Assembly: GCA_040752395.1 (NCBI GenBank)
Contig: JBFMHD010000178.1
Span: 1 to 5,731, forward strand
Direction of reading: 5' to 3'
DNA: 5,731 nucleotides
Source: JBFMHD01 sp040752395 [NCBI: Candidatus Hydrogenedentota bacterium]
GTDB lineage: Bacteria; JBFMHD01
Positions 1 to 5,731 of the stretch are shown piece by piece (the first letter of the stretch is position 1; each line of letters starts with the position of its first letter). Under the pieces are notes generated by a model. The model was not told the DNA's origin and searched no databases. It was given only the letters and a program-made list of their open reading frames with translations. A program made the position numbers and the translations under genes.

Positions 1-91
1 CCTGTTTTGACTCACGACTCTCGACTCCCGACCCCTAATATACCCCATCCCCTATGACCCATCCCCTAATATCCTTTGTGCCTCTGTGCCT
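1..91 (-). repeat. Left arm of 91-bp inverted repeat
   Basis: This segment is the reverse complement of 5638-5728, with mismatches only at positions 20 and 21, so 89 of 91 bases pair. It is itself built from short related words: on the minus strand it runs CACAGAGG/CACAAAGG-type units, then about three 15-base units containing TAGGGGATGGG or TAGGGGTCGGG, then variants of GAGTC, ending in a core that reads GAGTCGTGAGTCAAAACAGG at positions 20-1. It lies downstream of the 389-residue gene and is oriented on that gene's coding strand. No ORF, transposase or target-site duplication is visible, and the outer flank is outside the window, so it is called only a dispersed intergenic repeat. Confidence 0.93.
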
Positions 92-103
92 TTCCTTTAA
101 ATC

Positions 104-124
104 TTTCAATCTTTCAATCTTTGA
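104..124 (-). repeat. GATTGAAA micro-tandem repeat
   Basis: Two perfect 8-bp units (TTTCAATC on the plus strand, GATTGAAA on the minus) are followed by a degenerate third (TTTGA). The tract sits eight bases beyond the stop codon of the minus-strand 389-residue gene. The same 8-bp word occurs in three units at 5558-5581, at the 3' end of the HAD gene, so this tract belongs to the same composite downstream element as the 91-bp repeat. Confidence 0.8.
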
Positions 125-132
125 CTTCTAAT

Positions 133-1302
133 TTACTCGATATGAAATAGTCTGAACAATACCACTATTGGGGTGTAGTATGATTTTATAGCATCAGCAT
201 TACCACCATACGCTGTAACTATAGCAGGGTATTTATCACATAATTTGAAATAATTTGATGCTTTATTTAGAATGAGCTGTGTTTTCTGCATTTGTTCTGG
301 GGGATAATTTTTTACGGTTTCCGGATCAGAGCTGATGGATTTTAAGTGTTCAAGAATTTTTATTACGATATCACGTTTTATGTCTACTAATAGATCAATG
401 AGTTCTACTGGATATTTTTGTGAGACAAGGAATCTACCTTCTTCAAGGAGTAGTTTTATACGGTTAGCAATGCTGAGTTGTTCAGCGATTTTTTCATAAT
501 CTCTATATTTTATTTCTTCTTCTGGTTTCTTTTCTTTTTTAGGCAGTTCTTTTTTTTCTTCGCCAAACATCCATGCGTTCAAACATCTACGAGTTCTTTT
601 CGAACGAGAGTCATAGATTTTAAGTCTGCCGTCCTCAACACTATAGATACAGGTACGGTTTTCGCGTGATAGTATAGAATCGAGCTCTTCTTTTTGTTTT
701 AGAAAATCGCTTATTGATTCATCGGTATCGATTAATTTTAAAATCTCGGAGATTGGTTTCTTGGATATAGTGGTCGCTGAGCTATAAATAGATTTGAGGT
801 ACTCGGTATATAAAAATGTAGAGCTTGTTAAAAGAGGAAACTTAAATAATAGATCAGCTTTTTTATTTAATCCCGCTTCTTTTATCTCGCATAGCTTAAT
901 TAATTTTTCATATTGAGATGGTAGTATTAAATGGATAAACTGGTAATCTTTAAATTCTTCGAATCTGCCAGTGAACTGCATTCTTTTACCGCCAATGATT
1001 TCCGGTTTACCTGAATAATGTCCCTGAAACGAGCCAGCAGAGTTGTATAAGATATACACTTCAAAATCGCGCATCGATTTCGATTCAGTTCTAAAACCTG
1101 CTTCTTCAAGATAGGATTTAATCTCATGGTCTATATTATGTAATGTTATTTTAGAAGGGGAGGGGTATCCATATATATCTCTTATAAAATCGCAATCAGT
1201 TCCATAAAAGTTCATTATGACTTTAGTTTTTAATCCCTCCTGCAGCCCTTCTATCTCTTTATAAAATTTCCATAAATAATAAACTATAAGATAATCTTTC
1301 AT
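133..1302 (-). CDS. Hypothetical protein, 389 aa, downstream of FapA-family gene
   Basis: I do not recognise this family. The protein is soluble: there is no signal peptide and no convincing membrane segment, although the N-terminus is aromatic-rich (MKDYLIVYYLWKFYKEI). Three parts can be seen: an alpha/beta-looking N-terminal region (about 1-135), a mostly helical region (about 136-245), and, after a highly charged Lys/Glu/Pro linker at about 248-266, a helical C-terminal region (about 267-389). No catalytic or metal-binding signature is evident; cysteines are few and scattered. The ATG at 1300-1302 is preceded by AGGAG (1318-1314 on the minus strand, 11 bases away), which overlaps the TAG stop of the upstream FapA-family gene. 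The intergenic gap is 14 bases, so co-transcription and probable translational coupling with that gene are inferred. It may work with the FapA-like protein, but that rests only on position. Its stop lies a few bases from the terminal repeat tract. Confidence 0.85.
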   Translation of the reverse strand: MKDYLIVYYLWKFYKEIEGLQEGLKTKVIMNFYGTDCDFIRDIYGYPSPSKITLHNIDHEIKSYLEEAGFRTESKSMRDFEVYILYNSAGSFQGHYSGKPEIIGGKRMQFTGRFEEFKDYQFIHLILPSQYEKLIKLCEIKEAGLNKKADLLFKFPLLTSSTFLYTEYLKSIYSSATTISKKPISEILKLIDTDESISDFLKQKEELDSILSRENRTCIYSVEDGRLKIYDSRSKRTRRCLNAWMFGEEKKELPKKEKKPEEEIKYRDYEKIAEQLSIANRIKLLLEEGRFLVSQKYPVELIDLLVDIKRDIVIKILEHLKSISSDPETVKNYPPEQMQKTQLILNKASNYFKLCDKYPAIVTAYGGNADAIKSYYTPIVVLFRLFHIE

Positions 1303-1316
1303 GGTAGTTGATACTC

Positions 1317-2732
1317 CTAGCCACTACCTACCACAAATGCACCGTCGATTATTTTTATAAAAAACGGTGATTGTTCTGTGGAGATTTTAATACTATTTTT
1401 TGGTGAATAGAACTCAGTGCCCGGATAAATTTTCTTTGCAGATATAACCGAGGCATAGGATTCGTTAATTTTAAACGAAAGTAATCTTGTTTCAATTATA
1501 ATAGCTAAAATCTCACCAATAGACTTTTTTCTTAGAGCAATTAATGCATCATATAGTTTAAGTTTTTCTTCATCAAGTTTACCCTCTTTTTTCTGCGATT
1601 CAAGGATATTAATATTTTTGTCTGACTCAATATAACTTCTGCGATTTTTAATAAATTCCTTCTCAAGCTGCATAAATCTTGCAAACGCCTCGTAGGGTAG
1701 TCCGCATTCTATCACAGTGCGTGGATATGCCTCAGCTCCGATAACATTCGCAACAACACCTTTTGTAGCAGTAATTTTACCACCTATAATTGCACCTTTC
1801 CCCTCCTCAACTTTTAAAAAACCACCTGTATATATTTCGCTATGCATTATAGAATCGTGAACTATACAATCTTCTTTTGAATATACTATACCCTGATTGA
1901 CAAATAATACCTCAACTTTTTCAGCGGTGATAATCCCTTTTTCTTTGCCATTAAAACCACCTTTTATTGTTACAGATTTTCCAGACTCAATGTTTGCAGC
2001 ACCAACTGCTCCATTAATCACAATTTCTTCATTAGCTTTTATAATATAACCATCTAAAACAGAGCCCTGAACAATTACGCTACCAACAAAATGTATGTTA
2101 CCGGTTGCTGAGCCAACATCTCCACTAACAATATACACAGGGTCAACTTCTATACGATTTTTTCGTATCACTACCATTCCGTCACAGGAAGCATATAGTT
2201 CGTTCCCATCTTGAGAAAAATAAGTATTCGTGCCTCCAAGAAGTTTGACATCCGCAACTCGGCTTGGATGAATCGTGAGACGTTTTACAGATATACCTGT
2301 CCGTCCGTAAACAGGTGGTATATGAACAGCTAACAACTGATCCTTAACAATATTCTCAATTTTATGTAATTCTTTAAGATTAACTCTACCGTGTTCATCT
2401 ACTTTTGGCATGGTTTCAGAATCAATTCTGAATTTATAATCGATATAGCCATCTTTCCCCTCAACCGCAGGTTTCCCCCATGCTATCTCCACCCATTGTT
2501 CTTCTATCTTTTTACTGATAACATTTTCAAAGATTGACTCATCTATACCGTATTTAATACCTTTTGAGTTTATTATGGCTTTTATTTCTTCGGCAGATGG
2601 TCTATACTGAAGAAAGGTACTTGCATCGATACGAATATATCCTTTAAGGTCATTATCTCTGAAATCAACAGCAATATGTCGTTTCAAAGCATTCTCTCTT
2701 GGGATATCTTTTTCATCTTCTATATCAGCCAC
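1317..2732 (-). CDS. fapA: FapA family protein (DUF342), beta-helix polymerisation-type domain
   Basis: This 471-residue protein has the organisation of the DUF342/FapA (flagellar assembly protein A) family. The N-terminal alpha/beta region (about 17-195) carries the family hallmarks GKDGYIDYKF (92-101) and PPVYGRTG (139-146), then the SxDGNELYASCDGMVV stretch (173-188). A Gly/Val/Ile-rich right-handed beta-helix follows (about 199-345; for example GNIHFVGSVIVQGSVLDGYI and ANEEIVINGAVGAANI). After it come a charged helical, probably coiled-coil segment (about 346-412) and a C-terminal strand region with IYPGTEFY (435-442). Length is typical of the family. The start is GTG: an in-frame TAA (2735-2733) directly precedes it, and AAAGGGG (2746-2740) lies seven bases upstream. 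Members are soluble; one studied in Vibrio is tied to flagellation and interacts with EIIA-Glc, but many members have no known role. No flagellar gene is in view, so orthology to that protein is not assured. It is first in a two-gene operon. Confidence 0.92.
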   Translation of the reverse strand: MADIEDEKDIPRENALKRHIAVDFRDNDLKGYIRIDASTFLQYRPSAEEIKAIINSKGIKYGIDESIFENVISKKIEEQWVEIAWGKPAVEGKDGYIDYKFRIDSETMPKVDEHGRVNLKELHKIENIVKDQLLAVHIPPVYGRTGISVKRLTIHPSRVADVKLLGGTNTYFSQDGNELYASCDGMVVIRKNRIEVDPVYIVSGDVGSATGNIHFVGSVIVQGSVLDGYIIKANEEIVINGAVGAANIESGKSVTIKGGFNGKEKGIITAEKVEVLFVNQGIVYSKEDCIVHDSIMHSEIYTGGFLKVEEGKGAIIGGKITATKGVVANVIGAEAYPRTVIECGLPYEAFARFMQLEKEFIKNRRSYIESDKNINILESQKKEGKLDEEKLKLYDALIALRKKSIGEILAIIIETRLLSFKINESYASVISAKKIYPGTEFYSPKNSIKISTEQSPFFIKIIDGAFVVGSG

Positions 2733-2906: not shown

Positions 2907-2986
2907 AGACCAGAGTATAAAAATTTCATTTAAGCACTTGCCTCTGGCTTATTGCATCTCGCTTCTTATCACGGGAGCCAACTCTT

Positions 2987-3027: not shown

Positions 3028-3792
3028 ATGGAGATGAACAAAGAGTATTTAGATAATATAGTGATAATAAAATGTGAAAAGATTATGGATATAAATGTGC
3101 TTAAAGATCTGGATAAAGTATTTAAAGAGTGTTTAAATGCAAATGATATATATCTTGTTCTTGATTTAATAGATACTAAATTTCTCGATAGCATAATAGC
3201 AGGAAAAATACTGGCTATGCTTAAACTCTTCCACGCAAAAGGTGGAGATATAAAATTATTAAACCCACAATTAAATGTTATTCAGGCTTTGAAAACACTC
3301 GGCGTCATCGGATTGATTGATATCTATGACAACATTGATGAGATAAAAAAATCATTTACTCAAAGAGAACTTGAAAAAGAGGAACTTGAGTTTATTAAAA
3401 AAGAAGTTATAAAAAAAATTTTAATTAAATATGATGGGTTATGTACTGATATAACTATCGAGGACAGATTGCAGGCTGCTATTGAAGGAAGATATGTACC
3501 TAATATTGAAAGAGACTTAAATATTGTGGATATGTTTAGCAAAAAAAAGATGGTTCTTTTTGATAATGTAGATGAGTTCTGTGAACATCTTGAAAAATAT
3601 TTCAGGGCAAGAAGTCTCTCTTTTGAAGATATAAAAAATATGAAAAATGAAATGATAAAACTTAATGAATATTACTTAAAAGCTCTTAATAAAGAGATTA
3701 ACATTGAAGAGTTATATAAAATTTTTGATATTGGTAAATTCGATGCTATAAATAGAAAACTCGAACAGTTAAAAAAAATGATTGAAGAATAA
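3028..3792 (+). CDS. STAS-domain protein (anti-sigma-factor-antagonist-like) with helical C-terminal extension
   Basis: Residues about 8-110 fit a STAS domain, the fold of SpoIIAA-type anti-anti-sigma factors: an early beta strand (NIVIIKCEK), the central strand and loop VLDLIDTKFLDSIIAGKIL (44-62), a helix with KGGDIKLLNP (71-80), and a terminal VIQALKTLGVIGLIDIYDNIDEI segment (84-106). Ser55, in FLDS, matches the phosphorylated serine of SpoIIAA, although the following residues are Ile-Ile rather than the usual Ser/Ala-Gly. About 144 further residues (111-254) are strongly charged and helical, starting with a Glu/Lys-rich stretch (111-131); I recognise no domain there. Ordinary antagonists are about 100-120 residues, so this is a fusion or extended type. 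The ATG follows AGGAG (3015-3019) by eight bases; a second in-frame ATG at 3034 is less well placed. No anti-sigma kinase, phosphatase or sigma gene is nearby. The gene appears to be transcribed alone from the promoter near 2900. Confidence 0.85.
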   Translation: MEMNKEYLDNIVIIKCEKIMDINVLKDLDKVFKECLNANDIYLVLDLIDTKFLDSIIAGKILAMLKLFHAKGGDIKLLNPQLNVIQALKTLGVIGLIDIYDNIDEIKKSFTQRELEKEELEFIKKEVIKKILIKYDGLCTDITIEDRLQAAIEGRYVPNIERDLNIVDMFSKKKMVLFDNVDEFCEHLEKYFRARSLSFEDIKNMKNEMIKLNEYYLKALNKEINIEELYKIFDIGKFDAINRKLEQLKKMIEE

Positions 3793-3843
3793 TAAAGAAA
3801 TGATATAATTTTTTGATACTTCTTACTTTTTCGAACTACACTA

Positions 3844-3891
3844 TTGGGTTCTTGGGTTATTGGGTTATTGGGTTTTTGCGTTTTTGCGCTC
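3844..3891 (+). repeat. TTGGGTTA 8-bp tandem array, six units
   Basis: Six consecutive 8-bp units fill this tract: TTGGGTTC, TTGGGTTA, TTGGGTTA, TTGGGTTT, TTGCGTTT and TTGCGCTC. The central units are identical and the flanking ones diverge progressively, especially toward the right end. The first unit begins 52 bases after the STAS stop codon. No function can be assigned. Confidence 0.9.
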
Positions 3892-3927
3892 TACACAACG
3901 TATGAAAAACTAAAGATGATATGAAAA

Positions 3928-3950
3928 GAGTCGTGAGTCAAAACAGGACT
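3928..3950 (+). repeat. Third copy of the inverted-repeat core
   Basis: Bases 3928-3947 (GAGTCGTGAGTCAAAACAGG) are a perfect reverse complement of window positions 1-20. Bases 3930-3950 are identical to 5711-5731, the right end of the window. The 91-bp element is not otherwise present: only the core occurs, preceded by A/T-rich sequence in place of the AGGGGATGGG units and followed by GACTC words. It lies downstream of the STAS gene on its coding strand, as the other two copies do for their own upstream genes. Confidence 0.9.
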
Positions 3951-3967
3951 CGAGACTCAAGACTCAA
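3947..3967 (+). repeat. GACTCAA 7-bp tandem array, three units
   Basis: Units GACTCGA, GACTCAA and GACTCAA run head to tail, with a decayed fourth beginning GACTTTT. The first unit overlaps the last base of the 20-bp core repeat. GACTC-type words also make up the outer part of both terminal repeats, so this array and the core appear to be related. Confidence 0.85.
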
Positions 3968-3980
3968 GACTTTTCAGCAG

Positions 3981-4028
3981 GCTTTTGGCTTTTGTCTCCA
4001 GCCGGCTGTAGTCCGTAGCCTGTAGCCT
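3981..4028 (+). repeat. GCTTTTG and GTAGCCT 7-bp tandem tracts
   Basis: GCTTTTG occurs twice at 3981-3994. After a short unique stretch containing the palindrome CAGCCGGCTG (3999-4008), the units GTAGTCC, GTAGCCT and GTAGCCT follow at 4008-4028. The two words are unrelated to each other but share the 7-bp period. Confidence 0.8.
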
Positions 4029-4048
4029 GTCCTGATACCTCTCACTTC

Positions 4049-4132
4049 TTCCGTTATCTTGCTTCTTGCTTCTTGCTTCTTGCTTCTTTCGTTATCTTTC
4101 TTTCCGTTATCTTGCTTCTTGCCTCTTGCTTC
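4049..4132 (+). repeat. TTGCTTC 7-bp tandem array inside a 53-bp duplication
   Basis: Four perfect TTGCTTC units lie at 4059-4086. Three more (TTGCTTC, TTGCCTC, TTGCTTC) lie at 4112-4132. Each group is preceded by the same lead-in: the 21-base segment starting TTCCGTTATC at 4049 is repeated exactly at 4102, 53 bases on, with a degenerate GTTATCTTTC copy between (4091-4100). The array ends 45 bases before the Yip1 start codon. It is open in the frame of that gene, which creates a spurious hydrophobic extension, but the true start is downstream. Confidence 0.9.
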
Positions 4133-4164
4133 TACTTGATATTATTAGAGTTACAATGTTTTTC

Positions 4165-4172
4165 AGAGGAGG
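4165..4172 (+). promoter_or_regulatory. Ribosome binding site fixing the Yip1 start
   Basis: AGAGGAGG lies five bases before the ATG at 4178-4180. It decides the start: the open frame extends upstream through the TTGCTTC array to possible TTG codons such as 4073, but none of those has a Shine-Dalgarno site and the sequence there is pure repeat. Confidence 0.85.
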
Positions 4173-4177
4173 CTTAT

Positions 4178-4858
4178 ATGGATACCATTGATAAAGTTTT
4201 CCCATGGGAAGACCCGTCACTTGACATCTGGCAACGATGTATTGAAACAATAAAAGGCGTGCTTTTTCAACCCGCTTCCACATTCGCTAAGATATCTCCT
4301 CAAACAGGTATAGGTAAATCATTATTATTTGCTGTTATTTTCGGTACAATCGGGAATGTATTTGCAACAATTTATCAACTTGTTTTACAAAGTTTCAGTA
4401 TGCTTGGGCCGTTTTTCGGGACCAGACCAGATATAAAGGAAAGTGTTCTCGGTTTTATCGCGATGCCAATTGTCCTTGTATTATTTATTATTATATCGCC
4501 ACTTTTAGTTATGGTTGGTGTATTTATCTGGGCAGGAATATATCATTTATTCCTTTTATTATTTCGAGCCGCAGAAGGTGGTTTTGAAGCTACAATAAAA
4601 GTTGTAGCTTATACGATGGGTTCCACGATGTTGTTTAATATCGTTCCTTTTTGCGGTTGTATTATTGCAGGTATCTGGAGTCTCGTCTGCTACATTATAG
4701 GTTTTAAAGTTGTTCATTCTACAGATACATCAAAGGCTGTTTTTGCAGTATTGCTGCCTCTTATTATTGTATGCTGCTGTTGTATAGCAGTTATTATGAT
4801 GATAGCAGGGATGGGTGCGTTTGCCGGATTTACTGCCTATCAAGGACAAGGCTTTTAA
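4178..4858 (+). CDS. Yip1-family integral membrane protein
   Basis: This 226-residue protein is recognised as a bacterial member of the Yip1 domain family. A short cytoplasmic-looking N-terminus (1-45) has WQRCIETIKGVLFQPASTFAKI, the usual lead-in in which a short amphipathic segment and an FxxP motif precede the first membrane segment. Hydrophobic segments follow at about 47-70, 90-112, 113-130, 145-165, 166-178 and 187-217, so five or six membrane passes are likely. The stretch KVVAYTMGSTMLFNIVPFCG (141-160) is the family's characteristic region around the later membrane helices. A run of four cysteines (199-202) lies in the last segment. Bacterial Yip1 proteins are mostly uncharacterised; eukaryotic relatives act in membrane trafficking, which should not be carried over. 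The start at 4178 is fixed by AGAGGAGG. The 3' end overlaps or abuts the HAD gene, suggesting co-transcription. Confidence 0.87.
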   Translation: MDTIDKVFPWEDPSLDIWQRCIETIKGVLFQPASTFAKISPQTGIGKSLLFAVIFGTIGNVFATIYQLVLQSFSMLGPFFGTRPDIKESVLGFIAMPIVLVLFIIISPLLVMVGVFIWAGIYHLFLLLFRAAEGGFEATIKVVAYTMGSTMLFNIVPFCGCIIAGIWSLVCYIIGFKVVHSTDTSKAVFAVLLPLIIVCCCCIAVIMMIAGMGAFAGFTAYQGQGF

Positions 4859-5579
4859 GTCGGGTACTGATTCTAACAACACAGTGAATAATTACAAAGC
4901 TATATCGTTTGACCTTTATAATACAATCCTTGAGATAGAGACTGATGAAGAATCAGCTGAAACCTTTGATACATATTCAAAACTCTTAAGCGAGAAAAAG
5001 ATATTTATTCCACCAAATACATTAAAAGAAGATTATAAAAATATCTTGCAAGAAACAATAAAGACAACAAAACAAGGAAGAGAGATCGATATAAAGAAAG
5101 TATTTAGAAAAATATTTATCAAAAATAAAGTGGTAATAACTGGTGATAGAGTTGATGAATTGATCTATTTATTCAGGATCGCATCAAGAAAAAAGATTAG
5201 ATTAAAGATCGAATTAAGAGATTTTTTAAAAGAATTGAAAACTTGCTATAAACTCTACATCGTAAGTGATGCTCAAAAATATTTTGCTTTTCCTGAAATA
5301 AAATTATTTAGTATAGACAAAATTTTTAATAGAATTATTCTATCCCAGATTATAGGTTATAAAAAGTCATCAGGTAAATTGTTTGAGTATCTTATGAAAG
5401 AAGAGCATCTTGGTAAAGATGATATTATACATATAGGTGATGATGAGGATAGTGATCTACAGGGTGCGAGTAAAAGCGGTATAAAATGTATAATTATAGA
5501 CTCTGTCGATGAAGTTATACAAGCTTTTCAGTCTATAGACTATGAAATCAGTCGAGGGATTGAAAGATTCAAAGATTGA
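4815..5579 (+). CDS. HAD-superfamily hydrolase, subfamily IA-like
   Basis: All four HAD motifs are visible, numbering from the GTG at 4815: motif I SFDLYNT with nucleophile Asp33; motif II Ser151 in YIVSDA; motif III Lys184 in GYKKSSGKLF; and motif IV HIGDDEDSDLQGA with Asp209 and Asp214. A helical cap of about 90 residues sits between motifs I and II, as in the haloacid dehalogenase/phosphoglycolate phosphatase group. The second Asp of DxD is Tyr35, as in haloacid dehalogenases and several other IA proteins, so phosphatase activity cannot be assumed and the substrate is unknown. The start is uncertain. GTG 4815 overlaps the Yip1 gene by 44 bases and has AGCAGG five bases upstream. GTG 4884, 25 bases after the Yip1 stop, would begin the protein just before motif I (231 residues) but has no Shine-Dalgarno site. 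The last codons and TGA stop are formed by a GATTGAAA repeat tract. Confidence 0.85.
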   Translation: MRLPDLLPIKDKAFKSGTDSNNTVNNYKAISFDLYNTILEIETDEESAETFDTYSKLLSEKKIFIPPNTLKEDYKNILQETIKTTKQGREIDIKKVFRKIFIKNKVVITGDRVDELIYLFRIASRKKIRLKIELRDFLKELKTCYKLYIVSDAQKYFAFPEIKLFSIDKIFNRIILSQIIGYKKSSGKLFEYLMKEEHLGKDDIIHIGDDEDSDLQGASKSGIKCIIIDSVDEVIQAFQSIDYEISRGIERFKD

Positions 5580-5581
5580 AA
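5558..5581 (+). repeat. GATTGAAA 8-bp tandem array spanning the HAD stop codon
   Basis: Three units, GATTGAAA, GATTCAAA and GATTGAAA, run head to tail. They encode the C-terminal IERFKD of the HAD protein, and the TGA stop at 5577-5579 is inside the third unit. Related A/T-rich words (AATTAAAA, ATTCAAAA) continue to about 5599. The same 8-bp word lies next to the left inverted-repeat arm at 104-119. Confidence 0.88.
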
Positions 5582-5600
5582 AATTAAAAATTCAAAATTA

Positions 5601-5656
5601 GGAGACAGGAGACAGAAGACAGGAGGAGAAGACACAGAGGCACAGAGGCACAAAGG
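5601..5656 (+). repeat. GGAGACA and CACAGAGG tandem tracts
   Basis: GGAGACA, GGAGACA and GAAGACA form a 7-bp array at 5601-5621. A purine-rich bridge follows, and then CACAGAGG, CACAGAGG and CACAAAGG form an 8-bp array at 5633-5656, which runs into the right inverted-repeat arm. The left arm side lacks the GGAGACA tract and has one fewer CACAGAGG-type unit, so the two composite elements differ in word content and copy number. Confidence 0.88.
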
Positions 5657-5728
5657 ATATTAGGGGATGGGTCATAGGGGATGGGGTATATTAGGGGTCG
5701 GGAGTCGCAAGTCGTGAGTCAAAACAGG
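5638..5728 (+). repeat. Right arm of 91-bp inverted repeat
   Basis: This segment pairs with 1-91 as the reverse complement, with mismatches at 5708 and 5709 only. Reading rightward it contains roughly 15-base units built on TAGGGGATGGG (from 5660 and from 5675), a TAGGGGTCGGG variant (from 5691), then GTCGTGAGTCAAAACAGG at the end. It lies downstream of the HAD gene in the same orientation that the left arm has to its own upstream gene. The window stops three bases later, so the outer boundary of the element is unknown. Confidence 0.93.
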
Positions 5729-5731
5729 ACT

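What the first reader, a model, noticed from the sequence alone, without database searches (positions are those of the whole stretch)
3844..4132. Spacer built from a mosaic of unrelated 7-8-bp tandem words
Within 289 bases there are tandem arrays of at least five different words: TTGGGTTA x6, GACTCAA x3, GCTTTTG x2, GTAGCCT x3, TTGCTTC x4 then x3. The words are unrelated but the period is always 7 or 8 bp. A constant period with changing content points to a common process making short tandem duplications, such as slippage or a templated terminal synthesis, rather than the spread of one repeat family.
Basis: seen in the sequence. Interest (0 to 1): 0.62.

Follow-up and report, generated by a model that had tools for sequence, protein, structure and literature searches.

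The report
Intergenic mosaic of 7-8-bp repeats
The gap between two bacterial genes is built from short words each repeated head to tail every 7 or 8 letters; this looks like a real and dense example of a known kind of bacterial repeat, best explained by slippage during DNA copying, word drift and copying of blocks between gaps, not by a new machine.

Summary
In 3844-4132 lag-7 identity is 53% (z = 10), and period-7 and period-8 runs exceed all 2000 dinucleotide shuffles. The excess at 7, 8 and 14 sits in non-coding DNA. Some stated copy numbers count imperfect units.

Slippage is supported by analogy: the same octamer, TTGGGTTA, lies in the E. coli ydeI-dgcZ spacer, where 20 fetched genomes give array regions of 25, 33, 41, 49 or 57 nt, an exact 8-nt ladder; two Vibrio species differ by 64 nt at one homologous array, with drifted words. 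Period is inherited, the word mutates. But 'rather than spread' is contradicted: the window's ends are inverted copies (91 nt, 98%) of one composite of words, and 22 nt of it lie in the finding.

Heptamer abundance, the polymerase-slippage idea, 7-nt strain indels and mixed heptamers are in print (PMC4679880, PMC4692102, passages). Whether such words recur across phyla more than scrambled words stayed inconclusive. No genome is held for the window, so the genome-wide survey was not done. New member of a known kind.

The parts
3842..3886 (+). Octamer array TATTGGGT, 5.6 units, drifting to TTTTGCGT; 3846-3872 fits a G-quadruplex motif (four GGG, 5-nt loops)
   Evidence: TRF; unit print-out; G4 motif, present in 0 of 3000 shuffles of the spacer
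3929..3950 (+). 22-nt AGTCGTGAGTCAAAACAGGACT, identical at 5710-5731; 21 nt of 3927-3947 are inverted at 1-21: the link between this spacer and the two end composites
   Evidence: the repeat finder D11 and I5; alignments
3947..3971 (+). Heptamer array GACTCAA, 3.6 copies
   Evidence: TRF
3980..3994 (+). Heptamer array GGCTTTT, 2.1 copies
   Evidence: TRF, exact
4006..4030 (+). Heptamer array CTGTAGC (GTAGCCT), 3.6 copies, 2.3 exact
   Evidence: TRF, exact
4057..4133 (+). Heptamer arrays TTGCTTC: 4.6 exact copies, an interruption, then about 3 imperfect ones; the block TTCCGTTATCTTGCTTC... occurs at 4049-4080 and 4102-4133 (97%)
   Evidence: TRF; exact; the repeat finder D1
2937..2967 (+). Degenerate relative of the TTGCTTC array in the spacer before the STAS gene
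   Evidence: local alignment with the finding's array; TRF 2938-2964
1..122 (-). Composite of several words (GACTCAC, CCCCTAATA.., CCTCTGTG, CTTTCAAT) downstream of the gene at 133-1302; inverted copy of the right end
   Evidence: I1: 1-91 vs 5638-5728, 98%; alignment
5558..5731 (+). Second copy of the composite, at and after the 3' end of the HAD gene, with AGGAGAC/AGAAGAC-type units that the left copy lacks
3028..3792 (+). Upstream neighbour: STAS-domain protein
   Evidence: Pfam PF01740 E = 2e-8
4178..4858 (+). Downstream neighbour: Yip1-domain membrane protein. Start taken at the ATG after AGAGGAGG; the mechanical ORF list starts it at a TTG at 4073, inside the arrays
   Evidence: Pfam PF04893 E = 6e-15

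Best explanation
The spacer is a layered product of ordinary replication slippage (or unequal crossing-over) in DNA that codes for nothing. Step 1: chance or a local duplication gives two imperfect neighbouring copies of 7-8 nt. Step 2: slipped-strand mispairing adds or removes whole units, so the period is kept. Step 3: point mutations change single units and the changed units are multiplied again, so the word drifts while the period stays. Step 4: blocks holding several words are copied to other intergenic regions, where they keep changing. Shown: the period signal in the window; copies of a block within the window (step 4); whole-unit copy-number change (step 2) and word drift (step 3) for the same octamer in E. 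coli and Vibrio. Inferred: that the same steps made this spacer in this organism; why 7-8 is favoured (units of this size are too long for mismatch repair to see as small loops, recalled general knowledge, and 7 nt may match the stretch a DNA polymerase holds, Mrazek's published idea); that the arrays have no selected function.
For: Period 7, 8 and 14 signal in non-coding and not in coding DNA; 309 of 978 non-coding but 57 of 4752 coding bases lie in lag-7/8 runs of 6 or more. Drift inside one array, TATTGGGT to TTTTGCGT. E. coli ydeI-dgcZ spacer: 18 of 5426 genomes match the four-unit TTGGGTTA query; 15 of those 18 were fetched, plus 5 genomes of the common type, and the array region measures 25 (5 genomes), 33 (1), 41 (7), 49 (2) or 57 (5) nt, steps of 8 without exception. 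Of 60 rows spread over 5335 matching records, 58 span 24 or 25 nt less than the 5-unit query (from the printed coordinates). The common allele holds two imperfect octamers (BL21: ATTAGGGT ATTGGGTT), and strain N66 has ATTAGGTT ATTGGGTT at the same length, a plausible seed. V. vulnificus and V. parahaemolyticus differ by 64 nt (8 x 8) between the same flanks, with locally multiplied variants TATTGGAT, TAGTAGGT, TAGTGGGT. The composite copies at the two ends differ by inserted heptamer-like words.
Against: No second strain or genome of the window's own organism was found, so the dynamics are borrowed from other species. The long E. coli arrays are rare (18 of 5426) and 17 of the 18 are from pigs or wild boar, so they may reflect few events. 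Slippage alone does not explain why so many different words start in this DNA (10 arrays in 859 ORF-free bases against 5 in 6978 for an Anabaena plasmid stretch and 0 in 2900 for an E. coli stretch). In that Anabaena stretch periods 9 and 10 (3 each) are as raised as 7 and 8 (3 and 2), so it shows no sharp 7-8 peak. A function is not excluded: the array at 3846-3872 fits a G-quadruplex motif that 0 of 3000 shuffles of the spacer hold.
Confidence: 0.78

Rival explanations
1. The arrays are selected binding or structural sites: tandem words bound by a protein (a nucleoid or RNA-binding protein with a 7-nt footprint) or G-quadruplexes at gene ends, and the constant period is set by the ligand.
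For: G-quadruplex motifs at 3846-3872 and 5663-5686 on the plus strand and 43-66 on the minus strand, each on the sense strand of the gene that ends before it, 3 of 3. PMC4692102 (passages) reports G-rich heptamers near gene ends in Xanthomonas and Nostoc, and PMC4679880 (passages) notes CspB binding one protein per heptamer. The TTGCTTC array ends 44 nt before the Yip1 ATG, and its degenerate relative ends about 60 nt before the STAS start. Two promoter-like matches lie at 3782-3842 (mean 0.7 in shuffles).
Against: Words differ too much for one ligand (inference). Two of the three G4 motifs are copies of one composite, and 201 and 252 of 3000 shuffles of those segments hold such a motif. The spacer as RNA folds no better than shuffles (z = 0.21). 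The scan of 3780-4200 found one terminator-like site, on the minus strand, none on the gene strand.
Confidence: 0.12
2. A dedicated process, such as a templated polymerase, writes 7-8-nt tandem words into intergenic DNA.
For: High density of different words and the sharp period in the window.
Against: Words drift by substitution inside arrays; block copies explain part of the sharing; the same octamer behaves as a whole-unit ladder in E. coli. No gene of the window matched a polymerase family in Pfam or NCBIfam, though the ORF at 133-1302 is unassigned.
Confidence: 0.04
3. Assembly error: a short-read assembler inflated or joined repeats.
For: The window begins and ends inside the same inverted composite, as contigs that break at repeats do; no second source of this sequence was found.
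Against: Assemblers tend to collapse rather than mutate arrays (general knowledge), and units carry private substitutions; the end copies lie next to different genes, so they are not a hairpin join. Arrays of the same kind exist in finished genomes. The sequencing method is not known to me.
Confidence: 0.05

Closest known systems
Long simple sequence repeats of 5-11 nt with a heptanucleotide excess (Mrazek, Guo and Shah 2007; not held; known only as cited in passages of PMC4679880 and PMC4692102)
   Same: Unit 7-8 nt, longer than chance, polymerase slippage proposed with 7 nt as the length held by the polymerase
   Different: Here several words are packed in one 289-nt spacer and a block of words is copied between spacers
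Cyanobacterial STRR heptamers (Mazel 1990; not read, cited in PMC4692102) and mixed heptamer arrays in Microcystis, Cyanothece and Bacteroidetes (PMC4679880, passages)
   Same: Tandem heptamers, different words mixed in one intergenic region, indels mostly in 7-nt steps between two Cyanothece strains
   Different: Other words; host not shown to be a cyanobacterium; octamers are as frequent as heptamers here
Multicopy 7-8-nt tandem elements of Geobacter metallireducens (PMC2700814, passages)
   Same: Several families of 3-5 tandem hepta- or octanucleotides dispersed in one genome
   Different: There each family has one consensus word and is read as regulator sites or RNA elements
G-rich heptamers GGGAATC / GGGGATT of Xanthomonas and Nostoc (PMC4692102, passages)
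   Same: One array here has four GGG tracts at even spacing
   Different: Period 8, and most other words here have no GGG
Bacterial tandem repeats of constant size and variable sequence (Subirana and Messeguer, PMC8161180, abstract and outline)
   Same: Constant repeat length, changing sequence
   Different: Unit 20-21 or 52 nt there

Membership tests
Long simple sequence repeats, heptanucleotide class | Unit 5-11 nt, longer than chance | tested here: met
   Lags 7, 8, 14 exceed all 2000 shuffles
Long simple sequence repeats, heptanucleotide class | Mostly in non-coding DNA (reported for heptamers in Xanthomonas and Nostoc) | tested here: met
   309 of 978 non-coding vs 57 of 4752 coding bases
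Long simple sequence repeats, heptanucleotide class | Copy number changes between strains in whole units | not testable with these tools
   No second genome of this organism; seen for the same octamer in E. coli and Vibrio
Cyanobacterial STRR | Cyanobacterial host | tested here: inconclusive
   No relative found for the window; three weak plasmid hits for the right end, two of them cyanobacterial, E 0.1-0.4; no hit in phages
Cyanobacterial STRR | One of the published STRR words | not tested
   The word list was not read
G-quadruplex heptamer repeats | GGG-bearing unit of 7 nt | tested here: not met
   Four GGG tracts at 3846-3872 but period 8
TAACTGA repeats | Word TAACTGA in tandem | tested here: not met
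   Not among the TRF or exact arrays listed
Known structured RNA | Match to an Rfam family | tested here: not met
   0 matches at gathering threshold

The most novel reading that the evidence does not exclude
Bacteria of different phyla share a common dictionary of 7-8-nt tandem words (TTGGGTTA, CACAGAGG, GACTCAA, GTAGCCT and others), more than slippage of arbitrary words would give, because short composite arrays move between genomes or because certain words expand far more readily. CACAGAGG arrays with the same left edge ACCACAGAGG were seen in 3 of 6 compared places (an Anabaena plasmid and two viral contigs, not the window), and TTGGGTTA arrays in Vibrio, Photobacterium and E. coli records.
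Probability: 0.15. Interest if true: 0.65.

Novelty: new member of a known kind. Interest (0 to 1): 0.3.

Why it matters
It gives a clear record of how short tandem DNA may be born and change in bacteria: the period is inherited, the word drifts, and blocks are copied to other gaps. The E. coli ydeI-dgcZ spacer found on the way carries the same octamer with a common two-unit allele, a one-base intermediate and a ladder of expanded alleles in one laboratory-friendly species, so the old question why bacteria favour 7-8-nt units could be tested there. The window itself changes no known picture.

Tried and rejected
Finding the source genome: none held; the 22-nt shared block has 0 matches in genome contigs; the FapA protein found no relative in genome contigs or viral contigs (72 and 4 stretches matched a peptide pattern, none confirmed). 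Host phylum stays unknown. The right-end composite has no match in phages and three weak ones in plasmids; the finding itself matches one Vibrio record in plasmids, through the octamer.

Shared dictionary of words: viral contigs gave 10 records for GACTCAA (6 independent after merging overlaps), 5 for GTAGCCT (4 independent), 4 for TTGCTTC, 4 for the CACAGAGG word, 0 for TTGGGTTA; scrambled controls gave 1 (for GACTCAA) and 3 (for GTAGCCT). Plasmids gave 0, 0, 1 and 4 records for GACTCAA, GTAGCCT, CACAGAGG, TTGGGTTA against 1, 2 and 0 for scrambled controls of the first three. No control was run for TTGGGTTA or TTGCTTC. Inconclusive, and in plasmids against the idea.

Rho-site idea (C-rich words every 7 nt): dropped by inspection, not computed, since the sense strand at both contig ends is G-rich. 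Structured RNA: no Rfam match, fold z = 0.21. Terminator on the gene strand: none in 3780-4200. Telomere-like reading of TTGGGTTA: rejected, the array is internal, and the same array lies inside circular E. coli chromosomes. One paper search for such repeats in candidate phyla found 0 papers; I claim no absence from print.

Full report
WHAT IS THERE. The window (33.5% G+C) holds five likely genes: an unassigned one at 133-1302 (-), FapA at 1317-2732 (-), a STAS-domain gene at 3028-3792 (+), a Yip1-domain gene at 4178-4858 (+; ATG chosen by its AGAGGAGG site, the mechanical ORF starts at 4073) and a HAD-type gene ending at 5579 (+; ORF 4815-5579, searched from 4860). The finding is the spacer between the STAS and Yip1 genes. 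Tandem Repeats Finder confirms arrays with period 8 (TATTGGGT) and 7 (GACTCAA, GGCTTTT, CTGTAGC, TCTTGCT) at the stated places. Several stated copy numbers count imperfect units.

IS IT CHANCE. No. With the same rule for every period (7 or more matches in a row at lag p), the finding has 4, 3 and 2 runs at lags 7, 8 and 14 against 0.03 expected each, and 0 of 2000 dinucleotide shuffles reach them. All non-coding segments together have 6, 8 and 7 against 0.15. Coding DNA has 1 each against 0.5-0.6, with a weak excess only at the codon multiples 18 and 24. Lag-7 autocorrelation is z = 10.0; lags 14, 17, 21 and 24 are also raised (z 6.6, 4.8, 3.6, 6.1), which I put down to multiples and to a repeated block at 4049-4080 and 4102-4133. 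The window was picked because it looks repetitive, so its density is not a fair sample: with runs of 8 or more, 10 arrays in 859 ORF-free bases, against 5 in 6978 in an Anabaena cylindrica plasmid stretch and 0 in 2900 in an E. coli K-12 stretch. The Anabaena stretch also has 3 runs each at periods 9 and 10, so it shows no sharp 7-8 peak.

THE FEATURE IS WIDER THAN THE FINDING. All four larger non-coding segments hold such arrays. The two ends of the window are inverted copies of one composite of several words (1-91 and 5638-5728, 98%). Each copy follows the 3' end of a different gene. Aligned, the copies agree over 91 nt with two mismatches and then differ by inserted AGGAGAC/AGAAGAC-type units. 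The 22-nt end of this composite lies inside the finding (3929-3950 = 5710-5731), and a degenerate TTGCTTC array recurs before the STAS gene. So blocks of words have been copied between spacers. That the copies are real and not an assembly effect is inferred.

HOW SUCH ARRAYS CHANGE. The window's own organism could not be found elsewhere, so I used the same octamer in other bacteria. TTGGGTTA arrays occur in Vibrio, Photobacterium and E. coli records. All 15 of the 18 matching E. coli genomes that I fetched have it in the ydeI-dgcZ spacer. With 5 genomes of the common type added, the array region is 25, 33, 41, 49 or 57 nt long in 5, 1, 7, 2 and 5 genomes. In 58 of 60 rows spread over 5335 matching records the match spans 24 or 25 nt less than the five-unit query, as the common allele does; of the other two, one is the query genome and one a partial match (worked out from the printed coordinates). 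The extra 1-nt difference lies outside the array in the one such case fetched (L058). The common allele has two imperfect octamers, and strain N66 has a one-base variant of the same length with better-matching units; that this is the order of events is inferred. V. vulnificus and V. parahaemolyticus differ by 64 nt between the same flanks of a homologous spacer, and each has multiplied its own variant units. The window's first array shows similar drift, TATTGGGT to TTTTGCGT. A constant period with changing content therefore needs no special writer: duplication keeps the register, substitution changes the word.

WHY 7-8. Not shown here. Passages of PMC4679880 and PMC4692102 report Mrazek and colleagues (2007) as finding heptanucleotide repeats the most abundant class of long simple repeats in most genomes and proposing slippage tied to the length of DNA held by the polymerase; that paper itself is not held. 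PMC4679880 also reports indels mostly in 7-nt increments between two Cyanothece strains, and heptamers mixed with others in Microcystis and Bacteroidetes. PMC2700814 (passages) describes several dispersed 7-8-nt tandem families in Geobacter metallireducens, read there as regulator sites or RNA elements. PMC6749651 (passages) derives abundant bacterial satellites from hexamer and heptamer repeats. So the core of the finding and of its mechanism is in print.

FUNCTION. A role is possible but unsupported. G-quadruplex motifs lie on the sense strand after three genes (3846-3872; 5663-5686; 43-66 on the minus strand), but two are copies of one composite, and 201 and 252 of 3000 shuffles of those segments hold such a motif; for the finding's spacer it is 0 of 3000. 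The spacer folds no better than shuffles, shows no terminator on the gene strand, and the window has no Rfam match at gathering threshold and no tRNA.

A BOLDER IDEA TESTED. The window's words also turn up in viral contigs and plasmids, so I asked whether bacteria share a dictionary of words. Against scrambled words the counts were 10 and 5 versus 1 and 3 records in viral contigs (6 and 4 independent on the real side), and 0, 0, 1 versus 1, 2, 0 in plasmids, with 4 for TTGGGTTA without a control. This does not decide it.

VERDICT. New member of a known kind; interest 0.3.

Noticed in passing
L037-L041, L044-L058 (E. coli ydeI-dgcZ spacer): TTGGGTTA array with an exact 8-nt allele ladder in 20 fetched genomes; 17 of the 18 genomes listed are from pigs or wild boar, one from a human. 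Possible VNTR marker upstream of the diguanylate cyclase gene dgcZ.
   Followed up: partly
L019:532-887: Viral contig with a denser mosaic: GGCAAG, GGCAATG, AGGGCA, GGCTACG, GCTACAG, AGGATC, GGCAGGAG arrays of period 6-8 in about 350 nt.
   Followed up: no
L013:908-1007: 14.3 exact copies of AGAAGCA directly before a likely ribosome-binding site and start codon in a viral contig.
   Followed up: no
L009:1-94: 13.4 exact copies of CTTGAGT at the start of the held stretch.
   Followed up: no
L035:47580-47620, L015:71-114, L017:2470-2496: CACAGAGG arrays in an Anabaena plasmid and two viral contigs share the edge ACCACAGAGG; L016, L018 and the window do not.
   Followed up: partly
window 133-1302 (-): 389-aa ORF without a Pfam or NCBIfam match at the cut-offs used.
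   Followed up: no
window 3978-4029: Imperfect palindrome centred on CAGCCGGCTG joining the GGCTTTT and GTAGCCT arrays (73% complementary arms).
   Followed up: no
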